The notes under the pieces were generated by a model. The model saw only the letters and a program-made list of their open reading frames with translations, had not been told where the DNA came from and searched no databases. The translations under genes and the position numbers were made by a program. From Spironucleus salmonicida (taxonomy: Eukaryota > Fornicata > Diplomonadida > Hexamitidae), in contig CM035318.1 in assembly GCA_000497125.2 (NCBI GenBank), forward strand, positions 1,174,001 to 1,238,000: a DNA stretch of 64,000 bases, read 5' to 3'. Of this stretch, positions 34,965 through 64,000 are shown one piece after another (positions within the stretch are counted from its first letter, which is position 1; each line of letters opens with the position of its first letter).

Positions 34965-35637
34965 TTTAGGGTCAAAGTGATATTATTTATATATACTTAA
35001 TAATGTTCATTATTCGATGAATATCATAAAACTGTTTGTTGAATATTACTTAGGTTATGAGTAGTAATTAGCAGTAAAATCTGATAACTATATGATATTT
35101 AATTTAATAGGATCTGTAGTAATTTATTTTGTTAAAAAATAAATTATATATATCAAGCTATGCTAAACAATATTGTATTTCGTATCAGATATATTGTTAT
35201 AGGTTGTTTAATAATTGTAAATAAGATAATAGTAACTGTGATTCCTATTACATATAATTTTCATACGTTTAACTTTATCATTGTGGTTGATATTTGCATA
35301 TAACTTATAAAATTTATATCTTTAAAAAACGTTAAATAATAATAAACACATGCATCAAATATTCTTTTAGGGTTGTCTTTTTTAATAGTAAAAAAATAAA
35401 CCAATTATCTAGGAGTAACTATTCCTAGTCTACTGTAATAATAAATAAGATTATATGAAGATATAAATTTTTGAATTTATAATATTGATTAATTGTAAAT
35501 ACATCAAATTAATTTATTAAAGAAAAATTTATACCAATAGCTAAAATTATATATCTCTAATTATAGATTACTCTTATTAATTAATAAATATTATTATAAA
35601 TAAGTTCGTGAAATAATTAATAATTATTATCATTGAT
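34965..35637. other. AT-rich intergenic stretch with one weak open frame
   Basis: About 670 bases, strongly A/T. The only candidate gene is the 104-codon frame at 35160-35474 (listed separately). No tRNA, repeat or motif beyond poly-A/T runs was seen. The TATAAT-like stretches near 34985 and 35630 lie next to the starts or ends of minus-strand genes. Confidence 0.4.
35160..35474 (+). CDS. Possible small membrane protein, weak
   Basis: 104-codon frame closed by TGA. The translation is very rich in Ile, Val, Leu and Asn with two hydrophobic stretches (residues 12-30 and 38-52). In DNA this AT-rich, a frame free of TGA for 100 codons has an appreciable chance of arising at random, and hydrophobic residues are over-represented by composition. 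Listed because it fills an otherwise empty 670-base gap. Confidence 0.25.
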
Positions 35638-38571: not shown

Positions 38572-41500
38572 ATGACCAACTAGGTTTGCTTAGATGGAAA
38601 TACTGCAGTTGCTATGGCGTGTCATAAGTTTATCAACTTTTCATGTACGTTCCCAATTACTCCTAGTTCCACTATGGCAGAATTGGTTGAGTAGTATGCT
38701 GCTTAGGGTAAGAAAAATTTACTCGGTGAGGACATTGTTGTGAAACAAGCATAATCAGAACTAGGTGCTATAGGAACCTGTCACGGTGCGCTTGTTACTG
38801 GTGCATTAACTGCTACATTTTCTAGTTCATAAGGCTTGCTTTTGATGATTTCTAACCTATACAAAATTGGTGGCGAAAAGGCTCCATTTGTCGTTCATAT
38901 TGCTAATCGTAGTGTAGGATAAACAACAACAAGTCTGGCCACTGATCATACAGATATTTATGCCATTGAAGGTACTAATTTATCTGTTGTTTAAAGTGCA
39001 AACGTCTAAGAAGCATATGATATGGCAGTTTGTGCTCACGCAGCTAGCATCAGTGCCAGAAGAGCTGTTGCTCATAGTTTTGAGGGTTACAGAGTTTCTC
39101 ACTAACTAGAAAGTCTTGAAATAATGACGGATGACCAATTAAGCCAATTCATAGACTATTAATCATTAATGGATTGGAAGAATAAATCTGTAGCTAGTAC
39201 TGATAGACCTTATGCATAAAATGTTGGTCTTGGAGGTGAAGTAGCTATGTAATTGCTTGAAAGCTAGAAACATGATATTAATAAGGTTTGTTAAAAGTTT
39301 GAAAAGTACTTTACCCTTCTTAAATAACTTACTGGTAGAAGTTACCATTGTTATGAATATTATGGTGATGCCAACCCTGAGACAGTATATGTTCTCATGG
39401 GTAGCTCTACTGGTACTGCCATAAATGCTGTTACAGAATTGAACAAAAGTGGTGTAAAATGTGGTGTTGTTAAAATCCGTGTTTTTAGACCTTTTGATGT
39501 AAAAATGTTTTCTGATGCTATTCCTAAGAGCACAAAAGTCATTGTTGCACTTGACAGAGCAGGTGAGCTTGTTCAAACTGGTGGAACCATCTATAGAGAA
39601 GTATGCGCGGCTATGATACAGATGAATAGAATCAAAAGTATTGAAGTGGTAACTGGTGGAAGGTACGGTTATTTGGGAAAAGAGTTAATGCCAAAAGATA
39701 TTTTGTCTCTTTCTGAGATATTTGGATCGAAAAATTATGGTACAATGCCTAAATAGTTCACTGTAGGTATAAAAGATAACCTAACAAATTTATCTATAAC
39801 AGACTCTCCCAATTCTGCTAACTTTGAATTAAAAATGCTATCAGATCTTGTGTCCTAAACATTGTTATATGGTATTGGCTCTGATGGTACTATCGGTGCA
39901 GCAAGAAATGCAGTTTAAATTTTAAAGAATACAGCTGATAATGTTTAAGTTCAATGTTAATTTTAATTTGATGGTAAAAAGTCAGGTGGATTAACTATGT
40001 CACATATAAGACTTTATAAAGGTGACGACAAAGAAATTTAAAAGTCTCTTCATAATGCTTAATATGATATTTAAGCTGCTTAATATATTGGTTGTCACTG
40101 TGAAACATATCTTAATAGATATAAAACAATGATGTAATAATTAAAACCTAACGGTGTTGTTGTTCTAAATGTGGATAATAAAGGTGATTTACTTGAATAT
40201 GCTAATAAACTTCCTGCATAACTTAAACATGATATTGCTGAGAAAAATGGCAAACTGTATATGGTAAATGCTAATAAAGTTTCTATAGACTGTGGAATAC
40301 CAGGAAGAACTAATAATATACTTTTGCTATTTTATTTCAAATTTGGTATGACTCAGCTTATTAAATTTGAGGATGCTGTCGAGGCTATGAAAGATGCAGC
40401 TAGAAAAACTTATGTTAAAGCTGGATAAAAAGTTATCGATAATAATATCAACGCAATAGATGCTACAGTCAAACTTATAGATTAATGTTATGTCAACTAT
40501 GATGTAAAAGAATGGCTTAACTCTAATATTAGTATATCTGGTAATGAAAAAATCAATGATTATTGCCCAGATTACGATAAGTTCATGACAACTGTGTTAG
40601 ATCCTTCTTTTAGAAGAGAGTTTGATCACATTACTACTAAAACTATGCACGAATATAATGGCGGCTTCTTCCCACCAGGTTATGGTGCTTATGAAAAATA
40701 GACATCTGCTGTAAAGGTTCCTAAATGGAATTCATAAAATTGCATATAATGTTCTATATGCGCAAGTGCCTGCTCTCATTCATCTATTAGACCATTTATT
40801 TTAACAGAGAATGATAGTCCCCCAGAAGGATTTTAATCTATTGAACTGAAAGGAAAGCATGAGTATGGTAATGGTGCAAGATATAGTATCTAGGTATCTG
40901 CTGCTGATTGTAGAGGATGTAACGTCTGCGTTAAAGCATGTCCTAAGTAATGTTTAGAAATGTCTGACGTGTAGGAAGAGTTGAAGAAATAGTAATAATT
41001 TGAATGGGCTAGATCAAATCTTTACAAAAATACCGAAAATGTCGATGGTAAGAAGGCTCCATTAAAAGATCTAATGACTAAGAATCACTATATTGAATAT
41101 GCTGGGTCCTGCCCTGGTTGCCCAGAATCTACTATGTTAAAAATATTAACCTAAATATCTGGTGAAGCTATGTAAGTATCTGTTGGCGTCGGTTGCTCGC
41201 TTGTTTGGGGGCAATATAGTATGATGAGACCAAATACAATTGATAGACATGGCAGAGGTATTTCGTCAATTTCCAGCCTCTTTGAAGATGGTTCTGTCTT
41301 CCATTGGGGATCTGTTATTGGTAGAAATAATGTCAGATCTCAAATCAAGCAATTCTTGGTTGACAACATCGAGAATATCACGTGGGATAAAAACGTATAG
41401 GAAATTACCAGAGGAGTGCTCGAGCATTTTGATGACCCATCACAGTCCTACAAGCACGCTACTGAGCTTCGTAAAGCTCTCAAAATCGATAATTTCCACA

Positions 41501-42312
41501 TTGGTGACAAGAACGACATGATTTTCCCAGGTTCGCTAACTGATGAGCAGATCAAACTTTCGCCCAAGGAAGAGGCCGAACTCAGCCAGCTGCTGCAGAA
41601 AAAGGTAAAGTTGACGGAAAGCACATTTTTGACCTACGTGAAGCTCAATAATCTGCTCCTTTCGGCCCACAATAACTGGTTTTACGCCGGCGATGGCGCG
41701 GTGTTCGACATCGACTTCAACGGCGTGGACCACATTCTGGCCAAGGGCGATAACGTGAATCTGCTCGTTTTCTGCAACCAGGTCTTCGCGAACACGGGCG
41801 GCCAGCTATCGAAGAATTCGTTCCTGGGACAGGTGACCAAAAACGCGTACAACGGCGTCAGCGCGCCCGAGAAGCAGCTCGGGCTCATGATGATTTCCGC
41901 GTACGGGAAGCACATCTACGTGGCACAGGTCTCGTTCGGCTTCAACAGGCAGCAGACGATCAGCGCGCTCAGGGAGGCCGAGGCGTTCAACGGGCCCAGC
42001 ATTGTGCTATGCTACAGCCCCTGCATCAGCCACCTGATCGATGGCGGCCTGCAGAACGTGGAGGTGCAGCAGAAACTGGCGGTGGAGAGCGGCGTCTGGC
42101 CGCTTTTCAGGTGGAACGGTGGAGCGGAAAAGGGCCAGAGGCTCAAAATTGACGGAAAGAAGAAGATCGGAGTGGATGAATTTATCTGCAACGAGCAGAG
42201 GTTCATGAGCCTGAAGAGCAGGAACAACGCTAGGTTCGAGATGCTCAAGGGGCAGCTCGAATCGAACGTCGCAGAAGTTCAAGAGAGAATGGAGGCGTTG
42301 AAGGTGATGTGA
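38572..42312 (+). CDS. PFOR: Pyruvate:ferredoxin oxidoreductase
   Basis: 1246 residues, typical for the single-chain enzyme. Domain I has FPITPSSTMAEL (about residue 27). Two 4Fe-4S clusters read CIQCSICASAC (724) and CRGCNVCVKAC (780). The third cluster draws on CPGC (846), GVGC and SPC. The thiamine-diphosphate motif is GDGAVFDI (about 1039) with NTGGQ shortly after. It oxidises pyruvate to acetyl-CoA and CO2 and reduces ferredoxin, the core of anaerobic energy metabolism in diplomonads. The first ~950 codons are AT-rich with many TAA/TAG glutamines. The last 298 codons (from 41416) are GC-rich with none. Confidence 0.98.
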
Positions 42313-42534: not shown

Positions 42535-43021
42535 AATTCACTTTGCCATGAGCTGGAAGGCGGTGCGAGCCGGGACAGTATTCGCGTACAGCTCGCCACC
42601 GCGCGCGGTGAAGGAGAAGCTGAGGTCCATGGGCGTGCGGCCCCCCTGGATCGGCAGGGAAATGGATATGGGGATGGAGACGCTCACGCGCTACCGCCGG
42701 TCCCGGTACTCAACACAGTCCTCGTTTCGGATGGTGCTGACATGGCGGGAGCCGAGGTCGATCCGGAGGCACTACTCGCCGTTGCTGACCAGGAGGTCGT
42801 CACGCCCCTAGACGAAGGTGGCGCTGCAGCTGAAGCGGCCGTTCAGCGTGAGAGTACACACTTGGGGAATCATTACGGAAGGGGGCTGGAATATCGGGTT
42901 GTAACGGGGTATTGAGGCGGTATGTGCTCTACTTTCCACACTACAGGATCTCTACTCGGGGTGGGATTGTTGATTAAGGGCATCGGGTATACTTTCGGTC
43001 GTAGAAACGCAAGTTAGAATA
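42535..43021 (+). repeat. GC-rich 487-bp inverted repeat, copy 1
   Basis: This segment recurs in reverse complement at 50328-50814. Across 487 bases I find one difference: G at 42591 against A at the matching position. GC content is near 60% against about 20-25% in the flanks, with abrupt edges. The left edge is aattcactttgccatg and the right edge gcaagttagaata. The two copies enclose 7.3 kb. No terminal inverted repeats or target-site duplication were found at the edges, so a known mobile element is not indicated. Confidence 0.95.
42538..42873 (-). CDS. Repeat-encoded unknown protein, copy 1
   Basis: 111 codons on the minus strand, ATG 42871-42873 and TGA 42538-42540, with three TAG read as Gln. 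The translation alternates hydrophobic and polar residues like a beta-sandwich (VSVSIPISISLPIQGG, DLSFSFTARGGELYA). The frame stays open upstream of the Met for over 100 codons, past the repeat edge, without another Met. An opposite-strand 141-codon frame (42548-42973) is the alternative. I prefer this one because the only base that differs between the two repeat copies is synonymous here (Leu) but changes Ser to Asn in the other. Family unknown. Confidence 0.45.
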
Positions 43022-43262
43022 CAGGTTAAATACTCAGTAAGCTTTAATAATATATAGATGGATATAATTTTAAATTAAGATTTTCTTACAGATGTGAAAG
43101 CTTCACTTATTGCTAATAGTAATATACCATTATTCTTTTATATATTGATATTTAATTATTAAATTATAAATGAATTGTTATCTAAACAAAGACTTAAAAC
43201 TTAAGCTCATACTAATCGTAATTATTATATATGTAATAATACATATTTTATTAAAATTCCAA

Positions 43263-45167
43263 ATGTCATCCAGTTCTACAAAACTTGCTTTTCAATACGC
43301 ACTTTCATAATTACCGATTTAACTGCCATCTACTCTTTAAATACCAAAGATTCCATCATAATTATCAGCAAAATAGTCATTAGTTCATCTTTTAAATTGT
43401 TTACCTTTAGATATTTAAAGTTAAGTGTGCAGTTCTTTAGCATAATGTAAAAAATGCGGATTCCACGGCCCATATTCAGTAGTTTCTGAGCACAGAGTAT
43501 GCTTATGTGGAAATAATTTAGAAATCATTATTCCACCAATGATTGAAGGAACTGTCTATCAGAACAGCAACAGCGTATACACTAAGAATCTTACCAGCCT
43601 TGTCACGTTTAAGGAATAAAAATATTATTGTATAAGATTATTTAAAGACAAAGTTTTATTAAATGATGGAGATTAAGAAAATTTGTTAAGAGAATCTGAT
43701 TTTGAATTATATATTGAAAAATAGTAAGGACCAATCTTTGATTAAATCGGAAGAGTTGTGTTGGCAATTTATGTAAATCATGTTGGTAATAGTGAAAGAA
43801 CAATAGAATTTAGCAAAATACAACCAAAGCCACGTATTTACATGAATAACAATGAATCTGCAATTAATTCAAGCATAAATTATACAATCCCCTAAAAAGA
43901 AGTCCTATAAAAAACAATTTATGACGTATAACGAAAGTTTCCTAAGGATTTTTAAATTAATCCATTATCTAAAAAACTGTGCTGTTTTAATTATGATAGT
44001 GCGCCATCTCATCACTATAAGTATTGTGAATTTTGTGGATGTGGATGTTCACTTACTAGTCACTTTTCATTACTATCTATTATGTGCTTTATACCTATTT
44101 TGCTAATAATAATAACTAATGTTGTCTTACTTCTAGTCTTAATATTTTTACGTTTACCAGACCCTGAAGTATTTATCACAGATAATCTTATAGTGAGAAA
44201 TAATGCTGCAATAGCCATGAATCTTAATAATGCAACATATTCGACTTTCATAGCAACTTAGAAGAGCCTAGATTAAATTTATGAAATTTATACATAAAAT
44301 ATTATAACAGAATTATTATAAACTGATCTACTCTAAAATTAAAGTCCTTTGGTCATAAAAGGTGTATCTAGCGATTTAGTAACCGTTAACTAACTAACAG
44401 TAGATAATGTTACAGTTACAAATTAGACATAATTTGACGGAAACTCAGTTTCTACTTAATCTATTACTTTCTAGCCTAATACAAATGTTATTTTTGGGCA
44501 AACACCTAATTTTAATGGGCTTATTAGCCTTGTAGATGCAAAAATTGTAGACCTTACTGCTTCATCCTTAAATTTTACTTAGTTTACATAATCTGGAATA
44601 TTTTCATCACCTTTAAAAGTAAATTCATTAACCACAAAAATCGGTAAAATAACTGAATTGACAACTAAATCTCTTACTTCCTAATAGTTAACAGTAGATA
44701 CTTTAAAAGTTACTGGAAATTCTATTTTGAGCTAAATTAAGACAACAAACCTTACAGTTTAGTAATCCCTTTCAGTATCTAACTCAATTGTAAATCTTCC
44801 TTAGCTCCTTAAATTTAATTCAACTGGTAGAATTTCTGGAGATTTAAATATAGAAGGAATTTTATAAACCGGTTAAAATACTATTTAAAACTTGTAAATA
44901 ATTGATTTTAAAGGCACAACATCAACAATTTAATCATTGAACACTTAAATTATCAATGCTGCTGAGAGTAGACTTGATATATAAAATTTAATATCTTAAA
45001 GTGCGCTAATTACAGGTTAAGCTGGAGGGTTAAGCATTAATGGAAATAAAATTATCGAATCTAATATAAATGGTTTATCTTTAGGTGCCAATAGTATTAA
45101 TTGCACTACATTTACAGTAGCAAAAAATCTAGATGTTGGCGTAGTTAATACCACAAGAATAAATTGA
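43263..45167 (+). CDS. Type II membrane protein with fibre-like repetitive ectodomain
   Basis: 634 residues. Residues 60-85 hold a zinc-ribbon-like CKKCGFHGPY...CLCG, and residues 239-262 a second cluster (CCFNYD, CEFCGCGCS). One strong membrane helix lies at about 268-293 (SIMCFIPILLIIITNVVLLL). After it come about 340 residues of short, imperfect repeats rich in Thr, Ser, Asn, Val, Leu and Gln, such as LTVDTLKVTGNSI, LTVQQSLSVSNSI and GDLNIEGILQ, like beta-solenoid or trimeric fibre shafts in tail fibres and adhesins. Cytoplasmic N-terminus and extracellular C-terminus are inferred from layout. No exact family. It is the first gene inside the repeat-bounded cassette. Confidence 0.8.
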
Positions 45168-45561
45168 ATGAAGCACAATGTAATGGATTAGGAATAATTT
45201 ATTTAAAATAAATATAACTAATATTGAGAATTATCGGCATTAATAGTAAATTTATTATGATATGAGTTTTTTATTATTAATAATTAGGTAGATTCACTTG
45301 CTTAATCGAAAGGGCTAATCACTATTAATCAGTAAAATTTTAACCTATATAGAACTTAATATTAACCTTTAATTACAAATATAATGTATTAATTTATGTA
45401 TAGTTCCTGGTTAAATAATTTTTATTATTTCATGCAATCACTAGAAATGAAATTACAATTTATTAAATATAATAATGCTATAATATTTAATACTTGTAAC
45501 CATAATATCCAGTAAGTCGTCCTATAATAAGAATATAGAACCATTAAATATGTAAATGAAA
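45168..45561. other. AT-rich intergenic stretch, nothing recognised
   Basis: 394 bases of A/T-rich DNA between the convergent fibre-like and cysteine-rich genes. No tRNA, ORF over 60 codons with reasonable composition, or repeat was seen. A short frame from 45170 runs about 20 codons to a TGA. Confidence 0.5.
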
Positions 45562-46413
45562 TCATTCATTCGAAAGTTTTTAAAGCTTCACCTTTCTCAT
45601 TTATACTAATTTCACAGTTACAAAATAAGATAAAATTAATATTTAAACACTAATAATAATTCCTAGCATCCATAATGCTATAGTTTTTCTCGAATTATTT
45701 ATATGAGTTGATCTTTGATCTTTTTTGCATCCAATTTTATCTGGTGTAAAACCCGTAATGCATTAACACTTGTTATTATTTACTATCATATTTCTACTAC
45801 AATACTCACATGTATTATCTTCTTTTAAAAAATTATTCTATAATAGTCCATCACGGGAGCATTTATTTACACATTTACTATGATTACTTATAGCTACATC
45901 GAAATTTGAGCACAGTGTACACTTATTAAATCCTGTAATTGCCTGAACCATATTTTTTTAACATGTTGCACACTTCAAGGGTACCTTTTACAATATTTCA
46001 GAACCTATAGTGCATACACATTCATTATTTACTGTTACATAATTTCCAATTGGAAATAATGGACAAAGCATACATTTATGCGTTGAAACATCGTAATATT
46101 GTGCTGGAATAGTTCCACATATATTAACACATTTTCCTTGCTTGTTGTGTTGTTCATATGATTTACAAGCTATTTGACTAAGAATTTTATGAATATCTGA
46201 TAATCTAAAATATTAAACAACTAATTTTTTTATTTGTTCAAGAATTTATTATTCCTCTAAACAAATATTAAGTTATATATAAAATATAAATGAGCAAACT
46301 TTACCTAATTCTTTAAGTATATTATAGATAATAATATTAATATATTTATTCACTTTTATGTATATTCTAATAGTGATAGAAATTTGCAAAAATGACTTCG
46401 TATTAGTCTTCAT
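45562..46413 (-). CDS. Cysteine-rich membrane protein (CRMP-like)
   Basis: 283 residues. About 17 cysteines between residues 90 and 240 occur mostly as CxxC or CxC pairs (CVNICG, CMLCPL, CVCTIG, CATCQK, CTLCSN, CEYCSR, CQCITG), the pattern of diplomonad surface proteins. A single hydrophobic segment at about 245-265 (ALWMLGIIISVQILILSYFV) precedes a short basic tail (MRKVKLQKL), as in Spironucleus cysteine-rich membrane proteins and Giardia variant surface proteins. The N-terminal 60 residues are hydrophobic and may hold a signal sequence. It faces the fibre-like gene inside the repeat cassette. Likely surface-exposed. Confidence 0.85.
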
Positions 46414-46574
46414 AATTTATATTTTATAATTACTATATAGTATAACTATGTAGTAATAGTTATTTAATCACTATTACTGACAAAGTTTAACATCAATTAA
46501 TTCGAGATGTTGAGAAAACAAATATAATCTATTATATTCTTAATTATTATAAATTAATTTTTTCATTTCTTTTA

Positions 46575-48089
46575 ATGAATGGAATTATTAAATAGCTATA
46601 ACTTCTTAATGAAGCGATTTATAGTAATATGCCATTACCTTCAACAACATAATTAACGTAGCTTGTCTTGGATTAACTTATTAAAAATAATATATTATTA
46701 TTAGAGGTGTTTTAATCGGCACCTTTATTATTGCTAGGTTTATCTGGAAAAAATTCAATTTAGTTATAAATTTTTAAAAATGGCTACAAAAACAGACAGT
46801 GGTTAAGTATATTTGATCCTAGTTCAATACAAACTCTTTTATTTAAAGGTATAAATCATTGTACATTTAAAATATAAACTGAAAGTGATAAAATCGAGAA
46901 AAAATTTTTAGTTTAGTAGTTGTTTGCGATATTTGGTATGGAAGTTGATAGTTATGAAATTTTTGTCAATTATATTTTAGAAAGTTTAGTTTATTTAATC
47001 TAAGGAACATTTTAGTGCAATTTTTCCTAGATTACGAATATTCTGAAAGTAGGCGAAGTAGTTAATTACTCATCTTCTTTCAATAAACTATTAGATACAA
47101 TATTTTCTATATTATCTCCAGTTGCATAACAAAAATTAGCAGTTACTTTTCTCGAAATCACTCCTAATTTTTCTTAGTTTGACAATATCGTATAGACTCT
47201 ATAGGTAGTTACAAAGTTTACGTAGTTAAATGCATTTTAAAATTATCAATAACGTATTCCAGAGCTTTTATAGACTCTTAGCGCAAATATTAATACAGTA
47301 GATACTCCACGAATTTTAGAACATATTTATTCTCCATAAATTATTTCTTTATCTAAAAAACTTATTAGGTAAGGATCATTTGATTTCGAATAAATTTGCT
47401 AGAAACTTATTATCTAGTTGAAGGAGGTTATTAACTATGCAATCTATAGTTAAAATTCTTTATACTCTTTAAAAATGCCATTAAAAATATAAGAAATAAA
47501 TTATCATATTATAAGAAGCTAGCTACAATTTTTAATAAATTCTAGCTAAATTATGTTTGGAAACTACGTTCCACCATTTTATATGGCAACAAATATGATT
47601 GTTAACATGATAAATTAGAATTAATTTTTAAAATTGAAATTTAATGATATAATTTCTTCGTATAAAAATTAAATGCCAAATTAGTTTTTTTATGGAAATA
47701 TAACATTAGAATAAGTAATTAGTATCGGAGGAATTAAAACGACAGATTAAAAACTTGACTCATTTGAGATGTTATAAAAAGCATAGATTTAACCTTAAGT
47801 TTAAGTTCAATAGCTATTTAAATCTTCTATTGCTAATATATCAAATGTAAATATTACAAAAGTTGAGCCATAATAAAAAATAACAGAAGATAGTACTGTT
47901 ATACTCGGATTGACATCATTTGCTGACGATTCATTACTTAGTGAAATTATTGCATAAAAATAACAAATACCCAACACAAAAAATTTAGAGGTTACTGATG
48001 AATCAGGTAAACTTGAAATTTCAAAATATTATAATGAAAGCATAATTGGAGAGGAAAGTAAGATTGATCTTGATCTAAAATTCTTATGA
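46575..48089 (+). CDS. Unknown protein, 504 residues
   Basis: ORF of 505 codons including the stop, AT-rich, with over 40 TAA/TAG codons. The N-terminal half is hydrophobic and helical (ILLLEVFQ, LLLLGLSG, SSFNKLLDTIFSILSP). The C-terminal 150 residues are more polar, with an acidic ending (SIIGEESKIDLDLKFL). No signal peptide or transmembrane prediction is clear, and no family. It lies inside the repeat cassette, 16 bases from the stop of the convergent gene. Confidence 0.7.
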
Positions 48090-48104
48090 ATAATTTAATT
48101 AATA

Positions 48105-48518
48105 TCACTATTTAGTTTAATGCTTTTATATTTACTTCAAACAGTATGATACATATTTTTTAATTTCATCAATATTCAGCCCTTACTTTTTAGCATGATT
48201 ATCCCACACTTCTTAAAATATTTAAAAGTCATTTAAGTCTGGTTTACTTTATTTTGCTGTTTTAATTATATCTAACATAGTATCTTTGTCTATTTACTAA
48301 ATATCTTCTTAGAATATTCTTTCGTGTGCTTTAAACTTCTGGTGCATTATTTTTTACTAAATTTTAAGCTCTTTTTATCCAAAAGCTATAAATTGTGATT
48401 TAATTTTAGCGGATAAAAGTTTATACTCATTATAAACTTCAACATCGGTTGAAGGAATTTTGTCTGTGCATTTCATATGCATTAACACGTATTCTTTTAA
48501 AACACTTGCTACCGACAT
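48105..48518 (-). CDS. Small helical protein, unknown
   Basis: 137 residues, entirely helical by appearance: MSVASVLKEYVLMHMKCTDK, a Lys/Gln-rich centre (FGQKELKIQQKIMHQKF) and a C-terminal helix ending KQIQKHQTKQ. No motif. It is divergent with the ZMYND12-like gene across a 101-base AT-rich gap that probably carries both promoters. Lysine and glutamine richness suggests a cytoskeletal or nucleic-acid-associated protein, but function is unknown. Confidence 0.65.
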
Positions 48519-48619
48519 TTTCCACTTTATTCTAATATTAATTTTTAATATGTATAATACTATGAATATTTATATTTATATTTTATATATAATATTTATA
48601 TTATGATCTCATTATAAAA

Positions 48620-50041
48620 ATGAATTCAAATAGTCGCCTTTTCGCAAATGAAACTACAGAAAACGAGATTTAATGGAGAACAATTCTTGAATAATAAAAT
48701 ATTAGAACAAATTTTCATCTTTTAAGACCACTCAATCCCCTCTCATCATCATATTCATAAACTTGTGATATTTGTTCAAATCCAGCAATTTTAGCATGTA
48801 TTTCTTGCCATTCTAAATGGTGTTCACATGAGCATTTTCTTCTAGATGATGAACCAGTGCATTCTCATATATGTTCCAAGCTTACGGAGCTATGGTTTAT
48901 TGCTTATGAAAATAAGCATGGGAATGAAATTGAAGCACTTCTTACAAACAGTTCAGAAATGAAAATTGAAAGAGGATTGCTTATGGAGATTCGAAGAATT
49001 TGTTTGGAGCGGTGTAGTGGATATGTGGCTGATAGAAACTGGATTATGGCTGTAGCCCCTAGTTTAAGGGTAGTTGGTCTAAGTGAAAAAATATTTGGAA
49101 AGAGATCGTTAGAGTTCATTTCTGCAGGGCTTTTAATGGCAAAATGTCATTTAGGGCTCAAAAAATATGAATATGTAAACAGGCATTTGTAAGTGTTAAA
49201 TGTTTAGATTATGGATATTATTAATGATGAATTATAACGAGTTTCTGGATAAATTGATAAGAGATTAGTATTCAAAGAAGAACCAAAAAATTTAGGTGAA
49301 AACCGTATTAAATTTCCGTTCGTCCAAATTCCGATTAAGGTAATTGAAAAGATGAACAATGAAATTGTAGCGGTATAGGGTAGACTTTATCATCTTTTTG
49401 GGGCATTTTTCTAAAGCCTTGGAGAGAGTGAAGAAAGTATTGATTTTTTTGGAGCCTCCATATATTTTTTGTCGCTTGCATATGGACCTACAGCTCTTAA
49501 AACTACTCTGGGATATCTGGAATTGGGTAAAAGTATGCTTATTGGTTAGAAACCATTCCATTCTCCACATAATCCTAAAATTAGATATAGCGAATAAAAT
49601 GCTATTGTAAAAAAAGTCCTTAATATCGTTTAGTTTAGTGTTGATGTTTGGGATACTATGATACGGCGTGCTATTAATACTAATACTCAACTATTGTATG
49701 ATTTTTGTGAAATAGGTGAGCCTAGGCTACTTCTTTAAGATGCAAAAGCAATATCATCACTCTATGTAGGTACAGCAAGTAGCTATTATTGTTCGGCTTC
49801 AGTTACCTTAGCTTTTTTATTTTTATCATTTGATAAGGATTATGAATCTGTAGTAGAAGCCAAAATAGCATAAAAAGCGCTATAAGGATATTTTATATGG
49901 AATGATGAAATAAATTCTTAAGAGTATTAACGAATGAAATTTCTATAGAAAGATGTCTCGGACATACTTTCCATATTAGAAACACCTGATGTTATGAAGC
50001 GTATTGCAATTGTTGAGACAAATGCTAGATCAAGAGTGTGA
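48620..50041 (+). CDS. ZMYND12-like MYND zinc finger / TPR protein
   Basis: 473 residues. A MYND zinc finger lies at about residues 48-84 (CDIC, CISC, KWCSHEHF, HSHIC), with the required Cys/His spacing. A helical TPR-type region of about 350 residues follows (AKCHLGLKKYEYVNRHL, SIYFLSLAYGPTALKTTL). A MYND finger followed by TPRs and no SET domain is the layout of ZMYND12, an axonemal protein that partners TTC29 in other ciliates and animals. In this flagellate a role in the axoneme is likely. SMYD-type methyltransferases are unlikely because no SET motif is present. It is the last intact unique gene in the repeat cassette. Confidence 0.8.
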
Positions 50042-50117
50042 ATTTGTATTTAATAGTAGATTTTGTTATTTATTACGCTATATTTCAATAAAGCGGTTTT
50101 AGTTCAATTAATTTTAT

Positions 50118-50475
50118 ATGGCCAACACATTATCACTAGCAACTGAATAAATTTTAAACACATCATAAAACTATCTCATTAACACGTGAATAAAATAAGG
50201 TAAACTTATATGTTAATACGAATAACGAAGTATCTTATTCTCAATAAGTTATCACTGTTACATCAGTCTACAATGATTCCACTCCACTTATATTATCAAT
50301 CATTTTAATATAAATAATAAGCAATTCTATTCTAACTTGCGTTTCTACGACCGAAAGTATACCCGATGCCCTTAATCAACAATCCCACCCCGAGTAGAGA
50401 TCCTGTAGTGTGGAAAGTAGAGCACATACCGCCTCAATACCCCGTTACAACCCGATATTCCAGCCCCCTTCCGTA
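50118..50475 (+). pseudogene. Possible frameshifted 5' part of the repeat-encoded gene
   Basis: An ATG at 50118 with good upstream context opens a 23-codon frame (MANTLSLATEQILNTSQNYL...) that hits TGA at 50187. A natural-looking frame one base over (REQNKVNLYVNTNNEVSYSQ...) then continues without a stop through the repeat edge at 50328 and into the 50476 frame. One missing or extra base near 50185 would join them into a protein of about 230 residues. Either a real frameshift (decay), a sequencing error or an unrelated small ORF would explain it. Confidence 0.35.
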
Positions 50476-50814
50476 ATGATTCCCCAAGTGTGTACTCTCA
50501 CGCTGAACGGCCGCTTCAGCTGCAGCGCCACCTTCGTCTAGGGGCGTGACGACCTCCTGGTCAGCAACGGCGAGTAGTGCCTCCGGATCGACCTCGGCTC
50601 CCGCCATGTCAGCACCATCCGAAACGAGGACTGTGTTGAGTACCGGGACCGGCGGTAGCGCGTGAGCGTCTCCATCCCCATATCCATTTCCCTGCCGATC
50701 CAGGGGGGCCGCACGCCCATGGACCTCAGCTTCTCCTTCACCGCGCGCGGTGGCGAGTTGTACGCGAATACTGTCCCGGCTCGCACCGCCTTCCAGCTCA
50801 TGGCAAAGTGAATT
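50328..50814 (-). repeat. GC-rich 487-bp inverted repeat, copy 2
   Basis: Reverse complement of 42535-43021 with one base difference. It lies between the ZMYND12-like gene and the proteasome beta7 gene. Right edge (gtgaatt at 50808-50814) and left edge (tattctaac at 50328) mark abrupt loss of identity to copy 1. Because the copies are inverted, recombination between them would flip the 7.3 kb between. Near-identity suggests recent duplication or ongoing gene conversion. Confidence 0.95.
50476..50811 (+). CDS. Repeat-encoded unknown protein, copy 2
   Basis: Same 111-codon product as the copy at 42538-42873. The protein sequences are identical, because the one base difference is CTG versus TTG, both Leu. 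The frame is open upstream of the Met through the copy boundary, so the true N-terminus may lie outside the repeat (see 50118). The stop TGA (50809-50811) lies 98 bases before the ATG of the proteasome gene on the same strand. Beta-rich, three TAG codons read as Gln, no known family. Confidence 0.45.
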
Positions 50815-50909: not shown

Positions 50910-51551
50910 ATGTCAACCCAGACTTTTTGCACAGGAAACTCTGTTGTAGCAATCCGCTACAACAACGGCACACTTATAGCCTCGGATAAAGCACTATCTT
51001 ACGGAAAGATGTCACTTTCTACGAATTTTTCGCGTATTTTCACTACCGCAACGACAGCAATTGCATTTTCAGGGGATGAGGCACATTTCAGGTCAACAGT
51101 CGACATAATCCAGCAAATAGAGAGGGATAACCGCCGCCTGGACAGGGCCGCCTTGACACCCGAACAGATCCACAGGGTGGTCCAGGAGCAGCACTACGCG
51201 GCTAGGAACGAACAGAAACCAGTCCTGAACTCGCTGATTGTTACGGGCAAGAATTTCCTGCAGACCATCGACGTTTTTGGAACCGTTTTCAGCCTGAACG
51301 TTGCATCAACCTCTCTCGGCAAGTACTATGCGTTACCGTTTTTGAGGGAGTAGTACAGAGAGAATTTGACAAAGGCGGAGGCAATCGATATTGCGAAAAG
51401 GGCGCTTTCAATAATGTACCAGAACGACTGCCTCGCATGCCAGAATATCGAGATCTGTACGATCGGGGATTAAGTGGAAAGGTTCCAGGAGAAGGTGGAC
51501 TGTAACTGGGACATCGGCAAGTACAGAGACCTGAGTGTCGTGATGAAGTGA
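50910..51551 (+). CDS. PSMB4: Proteasome subunit beta7 (PSMB4/Pre4-like)
   Basis: 213 residues. The start FCTGNSVVAIRYNNGTLIAS is the beta-subunit first strand pair, with no catalytic Thr1 after a prosequence, as expected for the inactive beta7/PSMB4. It continues with NFSRIFTTATTAIAFSGDEA, then SLGKYYALPFLREQYRENLT and the helix KAEAIDIAKRALSIMYQNDC, ending NWDIGKYRDLSVVMK. The order and the NWDI tail are those of PSMB4. It forms part of the inner rings of the 20S core. GC-rich, with one TAG and one TAA as Gln in the 3' part. It lies 98 bases after the repeat-encoded gene. Confidence 0.93.
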
Positions 51552-51566
51552 AAATACGCTAATTAC

Positions 51567-52208
51567 TCATTACACCTGCTGCGAGGAGCCTGATGAGCTT
51601 ACCCGGTCCAGGTCCGCAATCCAGTCCAGCGCTGGTACATCATTTTTCCCGCACTCCGGGGAGCTTGCCCGCATGGCTATCACACGGTCAGAATCAGGAC
51701 TCCCTTCTCGTGCCACCGCCGCCTGCTGGGCCTCGATCGCGCAGATGCTGAGCCAGTCCTGGCGGGTAAACTCGACGAATTTGGTGCTGATCTCCCGGGG
51801 CTGCGGCAGGGCCGAGAAGTCGATTCGGACGGACATATGGCCCTCAATCGCTTCACAGGTGAAGTTGATTGTGTCAGCCTCGCGGAACACGATAGGGATC
51901 AGTTTGAGTAGTCTGGGTTGCTGGAACTTCCTGCGCTTTTCCTGCGCCGGCGTGTCCTCGCGCAGTTCGAGAGGAAAATCCTACTAACGTAATCCGTTAC
52001 GCTGGTAGGAGTTCTTGACTTCGACGTTGAGCATTTGCACAAATTCCTGCTGGGAGGGAGAAATTTCGATGTCCGACTCGATCGTGGATAGGCACTGCTT
52101 GCTCACGGGATGGTTATTGGAAGAGTAATTCTTAACCTGCTGCGAAACTGACCTTTTGAATTGACCGAGCACTTATGGGGGCTTTCTGAGGAATATTTTT
52201 TAATTCAT
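51567..52208 (-). CDS. GC-rich unknown protein, 213 residues
   Basis: Minus-strand frame from ATG 52206-52208 to TGA 51567. The first ten codons (MNQKIFLRKPP) are AT-rich, the rest GC-rich. A charged linker at about residues 80-100 leads to a strand-rich region (LLKLIPIVFREADTINFTCE, MSVRIDFSALPQPREI) and an Ala/Ser-rich C-terminus. No family recognised. It ends 15 bases from the stop of the proteasome gene. GTG codons appear at alternative starts, but the ATG at 52208 is in frame and favoured. Confidence 0.75.
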
Positions 52209-60666: not shown

Positions 60667-62280
60667 ATGCTTCTTAATCGTCCCTCAAGAACATTATCTG
60701 CAATTAGTAATAAAGCTGCATTGTAAATAAGCAAAAACTAATTATAACCAGTAACATCAAAAACTACAAAAAGATCTTCATCAACATAGAAAAAATAATT
60801 AAATACTCAATTCGCTTAAAAAGATTTGAATACAGATGAATTATTGAAAAATCTAATCACATTAGATTCATAAATATCTGAAGTAAAATAAATTGGACAA
60901 GTTAAAAAAGATATTACTAAATTTACAAATATTGGTATTTAAGATATTTTACCTATATAAATTAATAATGAAGATAACAATTAAACGTCATAAAAATAAT
61001 AAAATGACGATTAAGAACTTAATGAACATATGTCTGTTGAAGAAAAATTAAAGATGTATCGTAATAACCCACTTTTATTTTAAAAAGTTTTGTTAGAATC
61101 TAAAAAAGTTAAATAACAAGAAATAAATAGATAAAGAGAAGAGTAAAATAAATTTAGATAAAAACATAGATAATAAATTGCGGGAGATATACCAATACCA
61201 CCTATGATTTCTAATTTTCTATCTCATAATAAGAAAGAATTATAATCTGGAAAATTCTAGTATGATAAACTTATGCATAATAGACAGATAAGAGGATAAT
61301 TATTGGAAGCATAAATAGATGATACGTTATCTAGAAAACGAAGATTAGTGGAAGTTGAAGAAACATTAAAGTATCCAATATTATTTCAATAAAAACGGGA
61401 AGTTTTACTACCACGTATTTATGCCCTATAAAAATAAAAGCTAGGAATATATCTTTTTTTAGTATCACGTATATCAGCGATTAATAAATAAACATGTAAC
61501 TATTAAAAGTTAAAATTTGAGAATATTAAAATCACAAATGGATCTAATCTTATTATAAAGTATTACAGAGAGTATGCAAGATTATAAAGAGAGAATAAAG
61601 TTTTTAATGCTAAATTAATCATAACCTAACATCTAAGATATTTTAGAATTAAAAATTAAAAGAATATACGTCAAAAAGCATTAGGTAGTATAAAGTATCT
61701 ATTATTTTAAAATTATAATGATAATGTATTTTTAGCTTCTATTAACTTGTTTTATCAGGTGTAATATGATCTTACTGAATCTCTATCTGAACTTAATATT
61801 AAAAATATGGCTAGAATGCAGATACTAAGAATGTATTTAAAACATAAAATAGATGAAATATCTCTTCATATTTGGATATAAAATAGAGAAAAGTTTCTTT
61901 AGGTTACACTAAAGCGATTATAGAATGATCGAAAAAAATTGAAGGAATTAAAATAATTTATGATTTAGAATCCTGCAGGAAAGATAGTCTAGCCTGAGAC
62001 TTCAGATGACTTTGACCTGCTAAAAAAGCTATAATTTTCGGACATTGAAATTACTAGTGCCGCAGAGGCAATTCTGTACGCGATTCTGAGTACACAGCAA
62101 GACGAGCTGCAGGACCGGTACGTCCAAAATAACAGTCCGGCGCAGTTGAATATCACGGTCGTCAACCTTCTTCCGGACCAGGATACGGTGGAACGATGCT
62201 ATCATGCAGTCAAGGCTAACCAGGATGTGTTCGAGTGGGCCCGATGTAGTGCGGTAGGACTGATGGTTCCCGACGAGTGA
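60667..62280 (+). CDS. Unknown coiled-coil protein, paralogue of the minus-strand gene at 62658
   Basis: 537 residues. Residues 120-470 are charged helical segments such as EAQIDDTLSRKRRLVEVEET, DRKKLKELKQFMIQNPAG and ILYAILSTQQDELQDRYVQN, ending in SPAQLNITVVNLLPDQDTVE. The same order of segments recurs in the convergent gene 62658-64000: DAQIDNVLSRKRNLLEREEF, SRKIKEFKQFIALYPPD, AMQEDLQQNYLLNSQPGAIN and VNTINLIPTDAYLE. They are therefore paralogues. Family unknown. The first 430 codons are AT-rich and the last 100 GC-rich. Stop at TGA 62278-62280. Confidence 0.8.
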
Positions 62281-62304
62281 TGGCACAAGGTTCACTTGAT
62301 TCGC

Positions 62305-62655
62305 ATGCGAGGGTTACGAATGCCAAGCCTCACACGGCGGCGGGTGGTGTGGAAGTGTTACCTGATCTGGCTCTTCACGGGTGTTTTCGGCGGTCACTAT
62401 TTCTATTGCTTATAATACGAGGCAGGGTTCATCTACCTGTTGACCTTGGGCATATTCCTTTTCGGCTGGCTCGGTGATCTCTTCATTATCCCACTGCTTG
62501 TCTTTTAGGCCAATATGATTGTAGACTAGCGAAATCAGCGTGTGGTACGGGAGGGCATTGGCGCTAATATCAAGGACAACCCTGGGCTGCGAATTCAGAC
62601 CGTACGATAGGTGCGGCCCACTCCCGACGACGGGGATACTGAGTTCGCACGATGA
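62305..62655 (+). CDS. TM2-domain membrane protein
   Basis: 116 residues, start ATG 62305 (a second Met follows at 62320). Residues 20-70 hold two hydrophobic helices split by a short loop: KCYLIWLFTGVFGGHYFYCL, then AGFIYLLTLGIFLFGWLGDL and FIIPLLVFQ. GGHYFY before the loop and GWLGDLFIIP after it are the TM2 signature. A charged C-terminal tail is cytosolic or luminal. TM2 proteins are usually small membrane scaffolds. It starts 24 bases after the stop of the preceding gene, in the same frame, and its stop is 2 bases from the convergent gene. Confidence 0.85.
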
Positions 62656-62657
62656 GG

Positions 62658-64000
62658 TCATTTATACTCTTCTTCAGGCTAGAGTAGTACGACTTCTTGG
62701 CCATCGAGCCAGTCCTGAAGGTTTTACTTGCGCCGCACGACCCATAGCATCTGCTCCAGGTAAGCGTCGGTCGGAATGAGGTTTATGGTGTTCACATTGA
62801 TGGCGCCTGGTTGCGAATTAAGCAAATAATTCTACTAAAGATCCTCCTGCATGGCCTTGGACACCCGGAGAACATACTACCAGGACATTTCGAGTTAGGT
62901 CTCTACCGGTAACTCTAGCTCAGCGATGCGCGCCTAGTCCTACTCCATAGTTGGTAATACTGGCTTATCAGGCGGATACAGAGCGATAAACTGTTTGAAT
63001 TCCTTGATCTTGCGAGAATCAGCCTAGAGCACGCGCATTTGCCGGGCGATAAAATGGTCTTTTTCTGTCTTCCAAATTTGAAATGCAGAGTTCTTCTAAT
63101 ACCCAAGAAGGTAGCTCATCAGCACATGGACCCTGGCGTTATTTTTTGTGTTTAAGTCATGAACACTCTGTACTATAAGCTCCTTGCTACTGGTGAAGCG
63201 AACTACTGCACCTAGGAAGCATTGTTGGTTGTAGTTCTCAAGAAGGAGCGCCTTTGCCGTCCTTAGTGAGCTAATTCGGTTGTTTTTGTTGCGCCTGTTG
63301 ACGTAAATCCTAAGGTTTCGTGTGATAAGGAATGCTGCTCTGAGTTCAGCCTGCTCTCGGTTGAATTGATGTCGATTGGAGAGACCTCTGAGGATAATCC
63401 CTTTGGCCCAGAGAATTAGGTTGTTGCTACGCTTAATCTTGTCGTATACCGCTCCCACCTGCCGCAAAACAGCAATGCGGCTGGAAAAGAAAAGGTAGAC
63501 TCCTAGAGTATTGCGCTAATTTATAAATATCATCGGTAGTATCGTTGAGATCTTGGGTTGCGAAACATTGTTCTAGGCATCGAACTCTTCTCGCTCAAGC
63601 AGATTTCGCTTCCGGGACAAGACATTATCAATCTATGCATCGGTTAACATCCCCTAATACTATCGTTTTGCCTATAGGCGTGATTTTCGCATAGCATCCG
63701 AGATGTTCTGAGCAAGATTATGTGTCACAAAATTATCAATGAATTTAATCTATGGCAGTCCTCTACAAATCAAGTTACGATGCTGTTTGCGTTACACCAA
63801 GTGATTATTGTACGTATTAATGGCCTCCTACCGTTGGATCTGCTACGACTCAAGTACGAATTTTCGCAAAAGGTCAGGATGTTAACGCAGGATCTTGATT
63901 TTCTCCTACATGGGGATATTGGCGTCCATAATGTTATCATTAGTTGCATTTTCGCTTTGATTTTCCTACGCAGCCTCAGCCTTATTCAGAGATACTGGGA
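62658..64000 (-). CDS. GC-rich paralogue of the 537-residue gene, 5' end outside window
   Basis: Minus-strand frame open for 447 codons from the window end to TGA 62658, with many TAG/TAA codons. Helical, charged: DAQIDNVLSRKRNLLEREEF, RSNNLILWAKGIILRGLSNR, SRKIKEFKQFIALYPPD, ending INVNTINLIPTDAYLEQ and QEVVLLQPEEEYK. The segment order matches the AT-rich gene at 60667, so this is its inverted paralogue. The start codon is not in the window. GC-rich throughout, unlike its partner. Stop lies 2 bases from the TM2 gene stop. Confidence 0.8.

What the first reader, a model, noticed from the sequence alone, without database searches (positions are those of the whole stretch)
42535..50814. 7.3-kb cassette bounded by a near-perfect inverted repeat carrying surface-protein genes
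Copies at 42535-43021 and 50328-50814 are inverted and differ at one base in 487, while flanking DNA is about 20-25% GC against about 60% in the repeat. The enclosed region holds a fibre-like type II membrane protein and a cysteine-rich membrane protein. Recombination between the copies would invert the cassette, which could switch the orientation or expression of surface genes. Alternatively this is a recent segmental duplication kept identical by gene conversion. I know of no described system of this form in diplomonads.
Basis: partly seen in the sequence, partly recalled or inferred. Interest (0 to 1): 0.85.

Follow-up and report, generated by a model that had tools for sequence, protein, structure and literature searches.

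The report
Identical inverted gene pair, likely homogenised
Two almost identical mirror-image copies of one small gene flank five other genes in what is probably a fish parasite; they are one of several such GC-rich mirror-image pairs along this chromosome, whose halves probably keep copying each other, rather than a switch for surface proteins.

Summary
The repeat is real: arms 42535-43021 and 50328-50814, inverted, 486 of 487 bases equal, flanks unrelated; no third copy found in the genome. Each arm is one complete 111-codon gene with its upstream region; the one difference is synonymous. The arms being identical, inversion would leave the five enclosed genes with the same neighbouring sequence, so a surface-gene switch is unlikely. 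Wider result: 260 kb of this chromosome hold five such inverted pairs (arms 0.5-12 kb, spacers 2.5-7.3 kb, 97.7-99.9% identical), with a sixth at the edge. Arms are 57% GC, spacers and remaining DNA 31%. This resembles mammalian palindromes under GC-biased gene conversion and Giardia's identical inverted vsp pairs. Diverged tracts inside two pairs support conversion. Against: 6 of 8 GC-rich pieces searched genome-wide have no second copy found, so conversion between copies cannot be the whole cause of the GC islands, unexplained in print since 2007. No reads or related strains were available, so conversion and inversion remain untested.

The parts
42535..43021 (-). left arm of the inverted repeat (487 bp, 58.5% GC): one whole gene with 148 bp upstream and 3 bp past the stop
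50328..50814 (+). right arm, reverse complement of the left with one mismatch (50758)
42538..42873 (-). arm gene copy 1, 111 aa in code 6, transcribed outwards; diverged relatives on C4 and C1; no Pfam hit; weak PH-like beta model
   Evidence: (Pfam run on copy 2, same protein)
50476..50811 (+). arm gene copy 2, same protein; GC3 0.85
42874..43021 (-). upstream non-coding part of the arm, 49% GC (0.19 and 0.25 in the 148 bp just inside the spacer at the two arms), C-rich stretch just before the ATG resembling the published promoter motif (by eye)
   Evidence: PMC3916229 passages
43022..50327 (.). spacer, no copy within the 260 kb surveyed, 26% GC
43263..45167 (+). 634-aa fibre-like protein: N-terminal Cys motifs, membrane segment, repeat-like C-terminal part (by eye); distant relative whose gene lies mostly in the arms of pair E
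   Evidence: no homologue found outside
45562..46413 (-). 283-aa cysteine-rich membrane protein (7% Cys, 4 CXXC, 2 CXC; C-terminal membrane segment and lack of a KKXKK motif by eye): fits published CRMP-2 criteria; one relative found on C1 (35%)
   Evidence: PMC3916229 section 15
46392..48089 (+). 565-aa protein, no Pfam hit
48105..48518 (-). 137-aa protein; sub-threshold hit to a recombinase core-binding model (15.8 bits, cut-off 27)
48620..50041 (+). 473-aa protein, MYND-finger-like by eye (no Pfam hit)

Best explanation
The feature is a short palindrome: an inverted duplicate of one complete small gene around a 7.3-kb spacer, one of several such pairs on this chromosome of what is very probably Spironucleus salmonicida. 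The two arms most likely stay identical because they repair from each other (arm-to-arm gene conversion), and this exchange, being biased to G and C, probably raised the arms' GC content. Crossover between the arms would invert the spacer now and then, with little or no effect on expression because the arms are identical. The enclosed surface-type genes are bystanders. Shown: the pair, its identity, its gene-sized extent, the other pairs, the GC contrast. Inferred: conversion, its GC bias, occasional neutral inversion.
For: One mismatch in 487, synonymous. Five inverted pairs in 260 kb of C3, 97.7-99.9% identical, plus a sixth (C3:1008842-1012733 and 1018001-1021892, at least 3.9 kb) found with a piece chosen for its GC alone (1 of 8 such pieces). 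Two pairs hold diverged tracts inside near-identical arms: A 54-78% identity over about 780 bp, GC 0.31-0.38; B 81-94% over about 590 bp, GC 0.44-0.58; windows of 99% identity or more average 0.63 GC in A and 0.57 in B. Arms GC 0.570 (A without its outer 1.8 kb), spacers 0.311, rest 0.315; 0 of 2000 circular shifts reach the arm value; one arm per pair, equal weight: 117 of 20000 random placements reach it. All codon positions and non-coding DNA are raised: GC1/2/3 0.56/0.43/0.75 against 0.37/0.28/0.31, non-coding 0.52 against 0.28. GC falls on leaving the arm at 18 of 20 boundaries, 13 of them by more than the 95% point of random steps (0.167, 150-bp windows); the 2 exceptions border another copy. 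In D the non-coding 148 bp of the arm are 0.49 GC, the DNA just inside the spacer 0.19 and 0.25.
Against: No outgroup and no reads: conversion, its direction and inversion were not observed; D alone could be a recent duplication. 6 of 8 GC-rich pieces searched genome-wide have no second copy found (copies in 42 inverted, 46 direct), including both GC-rich blocks just outside D. Taken singly, only A (2.5%) is below 5% for GC at its length (B 9%, C 30%, D 12%, E 20%). The outermost 800 bp of A are 98% identical or more at about 0.37 GC, so identity and GC do not always go together. Direct copies are GC-rich too (F 0.51), so the inverted arrangement is not needed for it. Some arm edges, such as the outer ends of D, are gene edges, where GC drops anyway; the random-step control does not allow for that.
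Confidence: 0.62

Rival explanations
1. Recent inverted duplication of a GC-rich gene; identity reflects youth, and GC-rich DNA already existed before the copy was made.
For: One difference in 487. GC-rich blocks without a second copy exist on both outer sides of D and elsewhere.
Against: In the original place GC should run on past the copied piece; at both inner edges of D non-coding GC drops from 0.49 to 0.19-0.25. Pairs A and B hold diverged tracts inside near-identical arms, which a single recent copy does not give.
Confidence: 0.3
2. Invertible cassette: recombination between the arms flips the spacer and switches surface-gene expression.
For: Geometry permits inversion; two of five spacer genes look like surface proteins; a relative of the fibre-like gene lies mostly in the arms of pair E about 19 kb away.
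Against: Identical arms give spacer genes the same neighbouring sequence in both orientations; the fibre-like gene carries its own upstream DNA; no recombinase above Pfam cut-off; the spacer genes scanned in pairs A, C and E show no common theme.
Confidence: 0.04
3. Assembly artefact.
For: Near-identical repeats are a known source of assembly error; no reads available here.
Against: Published mean read length works out at about 9.7 kb (2.6 Gb / 267,495 reads, from the table) at 161x, longer than the 8,280-bp locus; unique flanks; one difference between arms; the missed-adapter type of artefact leaves no gene-bearing spacer (recalled). Holds only if the window is from that assembly.
Confidence: 0.04

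Closest known systems
Identical inverted vsp gene pairs of Giardia (PMC2996952, PMC7000408, PMC7641422)
   Same: diplomonad; two identical genes head-to-head or tail-to-tail; identity extends a little beyond the ORF and then stops abruptly (139-729 bp in PMC2996952); intervening DNA between, with coding sequences in some pairs
   Different: here the gene is not a VSP and the spacer holds five genes over 7.3 kb (vsp pairs: 2,190-3,847 bp in PMC2996952; 2,513-12,440 bp in Table 2 of PMC7000408); GC contrast at these pairs was not mentioned in the passages I saw
Mammalian X and Y palindromes with GC-biased gene conversion (PMC8981503, PMC3723533)
   Same: inverted arms above 99% identity, spacer between, arms richer in GC than flanks (X palindromes)
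   Different: much shorter arms, in a protist, far larger GC contrast (57 against 31%; human X 46.3 against 41.2%); conversion not observed directly here
Duplicated regions of the S. salmonicida assembly (PMC9509377)
   Same: mostly single-gene duplications, mean GC 44.7% against 30.7% for the rest
   Different: paper counts only matches of 2 kb or more at 95% identity and does not mention inverted orientation (0 hits for 'inverted', 'palindrom' and 'orientation'); this 487-bp pair falls below its limit

Membership tests
gene-conversion palindrome (mammalian sex-chromosome type) | inverted arms above 99% identity around a spacer | tested here: met
   of the five pairs, C, D and E are above 99%, A (97.7%) and B (98.1%) below it overall
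gene-conversion palindrome (mammalian sex-chromosome type) | arm-to-arm conversion shown by shared change in both arms | not testable with these tools
   needs strains or an outgroup; only indirect signs, in pairs A and B
gene-conversion palindrome (mammalian sex-chromosome type) | arms richer in GC than flanks | tested here: met
Giardia-type identical inverted gene pair | two identical ORFs in inverted orientation, identity ending abruptly outside the ORF | tested here: met
   (ORFs differ by one synonymous base)
Giardia-type identical inverted gene pair | paired gene is a VSP | tested here: not met
   111-aa protein, no Pfam hit; by eye no membrane segment and no CXXC repeats (sequence)
invertible phase-variation cassette | a promoter or gene end is exchanged by the inversion | tested here: not met
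   from sequence only: arms identical, spacer gene next to the arm has its own upstream DNA
invertible phase-variation cassette | both orientations coexist | not testable with these tools
   no reads

The most novel reading that the evidence does not exclude
The S. salmonicida chromosomes are strewn with small palindromes that recombine with themselves, and GC-biased conversion in present and former palindromes made the isolated GC-rich islands and the very high GC3 genes that earlier papers could not explain; islands without a copy would be places whose partner was lost, or where allelic exchange is frequent. As a further step, polymorphic spacer inversions may hold back allelic exchange inside spacers.
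Probability: 0.3. Interest if true: 0.75.

Novelty: new variant of a known kind. Interest (0 to 1): 0.5.

Why it matters
Papers of 2007 and 2010 state that GC-rich regions and genes with very high GC3 in this AT-rich genome are hard to explain by mutation or selection (PMC1805757 section 15 read; PMC2874811 passages). A link to local inverted copies under conversion turns that into a testable claim, and would give a protist model of palindrome evolution outside sex chromosomes. It also removes a likely false lead about surface-protein switching.

Tried and rejected
Non-coding RNA or tRNA in the arms: no Rfam match at gathering threshold and no tRNA found in the window. Retrocopy: no poly-A tail and no target-site duplication seen by eye at the arm ends (sequence). 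Upstream overlapping frame as part of the protein: dropped, because the two diverged relatives lack it; the C1 frame starts at the corresponding ATG, the C4 frame has an ATG there but its longest form starts seven codons earlier, and I cut it to that ATG for the alignment. Phage or known relatives of the fibre-like protein: none in PHROGs, PDB sequences, or the 5.8-billion protein set apart from itself. Arm protein: no homologue but itself; model pLDDT 69, many PH domains among the Foldseek rows shown but none below E 0.06, so the fold name is a lead only. Outer flanks richer in GC than spacers, as suppressed exchange in inverted spacers would give: 4 of 5, 4 of 5, 3 of 5 and 1 of 2 pairs in successive distance bins, too weak to claim.

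Papers, what I saw: PMC9509377 sections 16, 21, 22 and passages; PMC3916229 section 15 and passages; PMC1805757 section 15 and passages; PMC2874811, PMC2996952, PMC7641422, PMC8981503 passages; PMC7000408 section 17 and passages; PMC3723533 outline with abstract, and section 13; PMC11787283 term counts only (no hits for the five terms). Statements that something is not in print rest on the searches (listings) and the term counts.

Full report
What was checked. The inverted repeat stands as described: 42535-43021 and 50328-50814, 487 nt each, one mismatch, 7,306 nt between. Ungapped identity outside falls to 24-44%. A genome-wide search with the left arm returned these two places only.

Anatomy. 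Each arm is one gene of 111 codons in code 6 with 148 bp upstream and 3 bp past the stop; the two copies are transcribed outwards. The mismatch is CTG/TTG, both Leu. The published polyadenylation signal overlaps the stop codon in this species (passages), so the arm holds what looks like a complete transcription unit. A C-rich stretch precedes the ATG, like the published promoter motif (passages; compared by eye, the logo was not seen). Two diverged relatives lie on C4 and C1 (33 and 26% identity); the C1 frame begins at the corresponding ATG, the C4 frame has an ATG there but its longest form starts seven codons earlier. They are AT-richer (GC 0.28 and 0.43 for the frames, against 0.63). They were the only other matches at E up to 10.

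Spacer. Five genes: fibre-like membrane protein, cysteine-rich membrane protein that meets the published CRMP-2 criteria, and proteins of 565, 137 and 473 aa. Their GC3 is 0.17-0.25 against 0.85 in the arm gene. The fibre-like protein has a diverged relative about 19 kb away (23% identity over 631 columns, E 6e-13 for that comparison, left copy; both copies show a short match). Its gene lies mostly in the arms of pair E, where GC is 0.41 against 0.28. So members of one membrane-protein family occur in two of these pairs; I take that as chance or local duplication, but it is the one fact that keeps a surface-gene link open.

The wider pattern. Comparing all against all of C3:1016001-1276000 gave five inverted near-identical pairs: A 1028755-1040829/1045741-1057813 (97.7%), B 1084679-1091565/1094534-1101434 (98.1%), C 1114853-1116415/1118895-1120457 (99.9%), D (this one), E 1236089-1240103/1243775-1247789 (99.8%), plus direct copies beside B and one direct pair F 20.5 kb apart. 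A sixth inverted pair lies at the left edge, and one direct pair on C4. Near-identical local copies, A's diverged tract and the sixth pair's inner copy included, make up 62,562 of 260,000 bases.

GC. Arms 0.570, spacers 0.311, rest 0.315. Of ORFs of 150 aa or more, 20 of 28 lying more than 90% inside copies have GC3 above 0.5, against 10 of 102 wholly outside; the arms of a pair are not independent, and ORFs in between are in neither group. Of 94 500-bp windows above 50% GC (520 in all), 73 lie mostly in copies. The conservative test, one arm per pair and equal weight, gives 117 of 20000. ORFs were called by length alone, covering 88% of the sequence against a published coding density of 69.5%, so 'non-coding' is approximate.

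Reading. Conversion between arms explains identity despite diverged tracts in A and B; GC bias explains composition in coding and non-coding DNA alike. It does not explain the islands without a copy: 6 of 8 GC-rich pieces have no second copy found (against 42, 46). The PFOR gene next to D goes from GC3 0.11-0.28 in codons 1-900 to 0.90 in codons 1101-1200, and no copy of that part was found elsewhere.

Comparison. The 2022 assembly paper reports duplicated regions (2 kb or more) as 19.2% of the genome with GC 44.7% against 30.7%, and suggests that gene conversion might be involved in expanding surface-protein families (sections 21, 22); it does not mention inverted orientation. In Giardia 14 identical vsp pairs are inverted and no identical vsp genes were found in another arrangement (PMC2996952 passages). 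Primate X palindromes show the same GC sign, more weakly (PMC8981503 passages), and in human P6 conversions far outnumber inversions (PMC3723533 section 13). The points I did not find in print are such pairs with genes of many kinds in this species, the size of the GC contrast at them, and the link to the unexplained GC3 genes.

Noticed in passing
window 41395-42312: Third-position GC of the PFOR gene jumps from about 0.2 to 0.58-0.90 in its last 300 codons; no second copy of this part found.
   Followed up: partly
window 62089-64000 (C3:1236089 on): The window's right end lies inside the left arm of another inverted pair (E, 4,015 bp, 99.8%, spacer 3.7 kb).
   Followed up: yes
C3:1028755-1057813 (L010-L013): Palindrome A: 12-kb arms whose GC rises from about 0.37 at the outer end to as much as 0.74; one arm gene matches Pfam IF-2B.
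   Followed up: partly
window 50910-52208: Proteasome subunit gene and a 213-aa frame, GC-rich, no second copy found.
   Followed up: partly
window 35299-35481: Imperfect AT-rich inverted repeat, 46-nt arms, 74% complementary.
   Followed up: no
C4:637623-638933 and 644215-645524: Near-identical direct copies 5.3 kb apart, next to the C4 relative of the arm gene.
   Followed up: no
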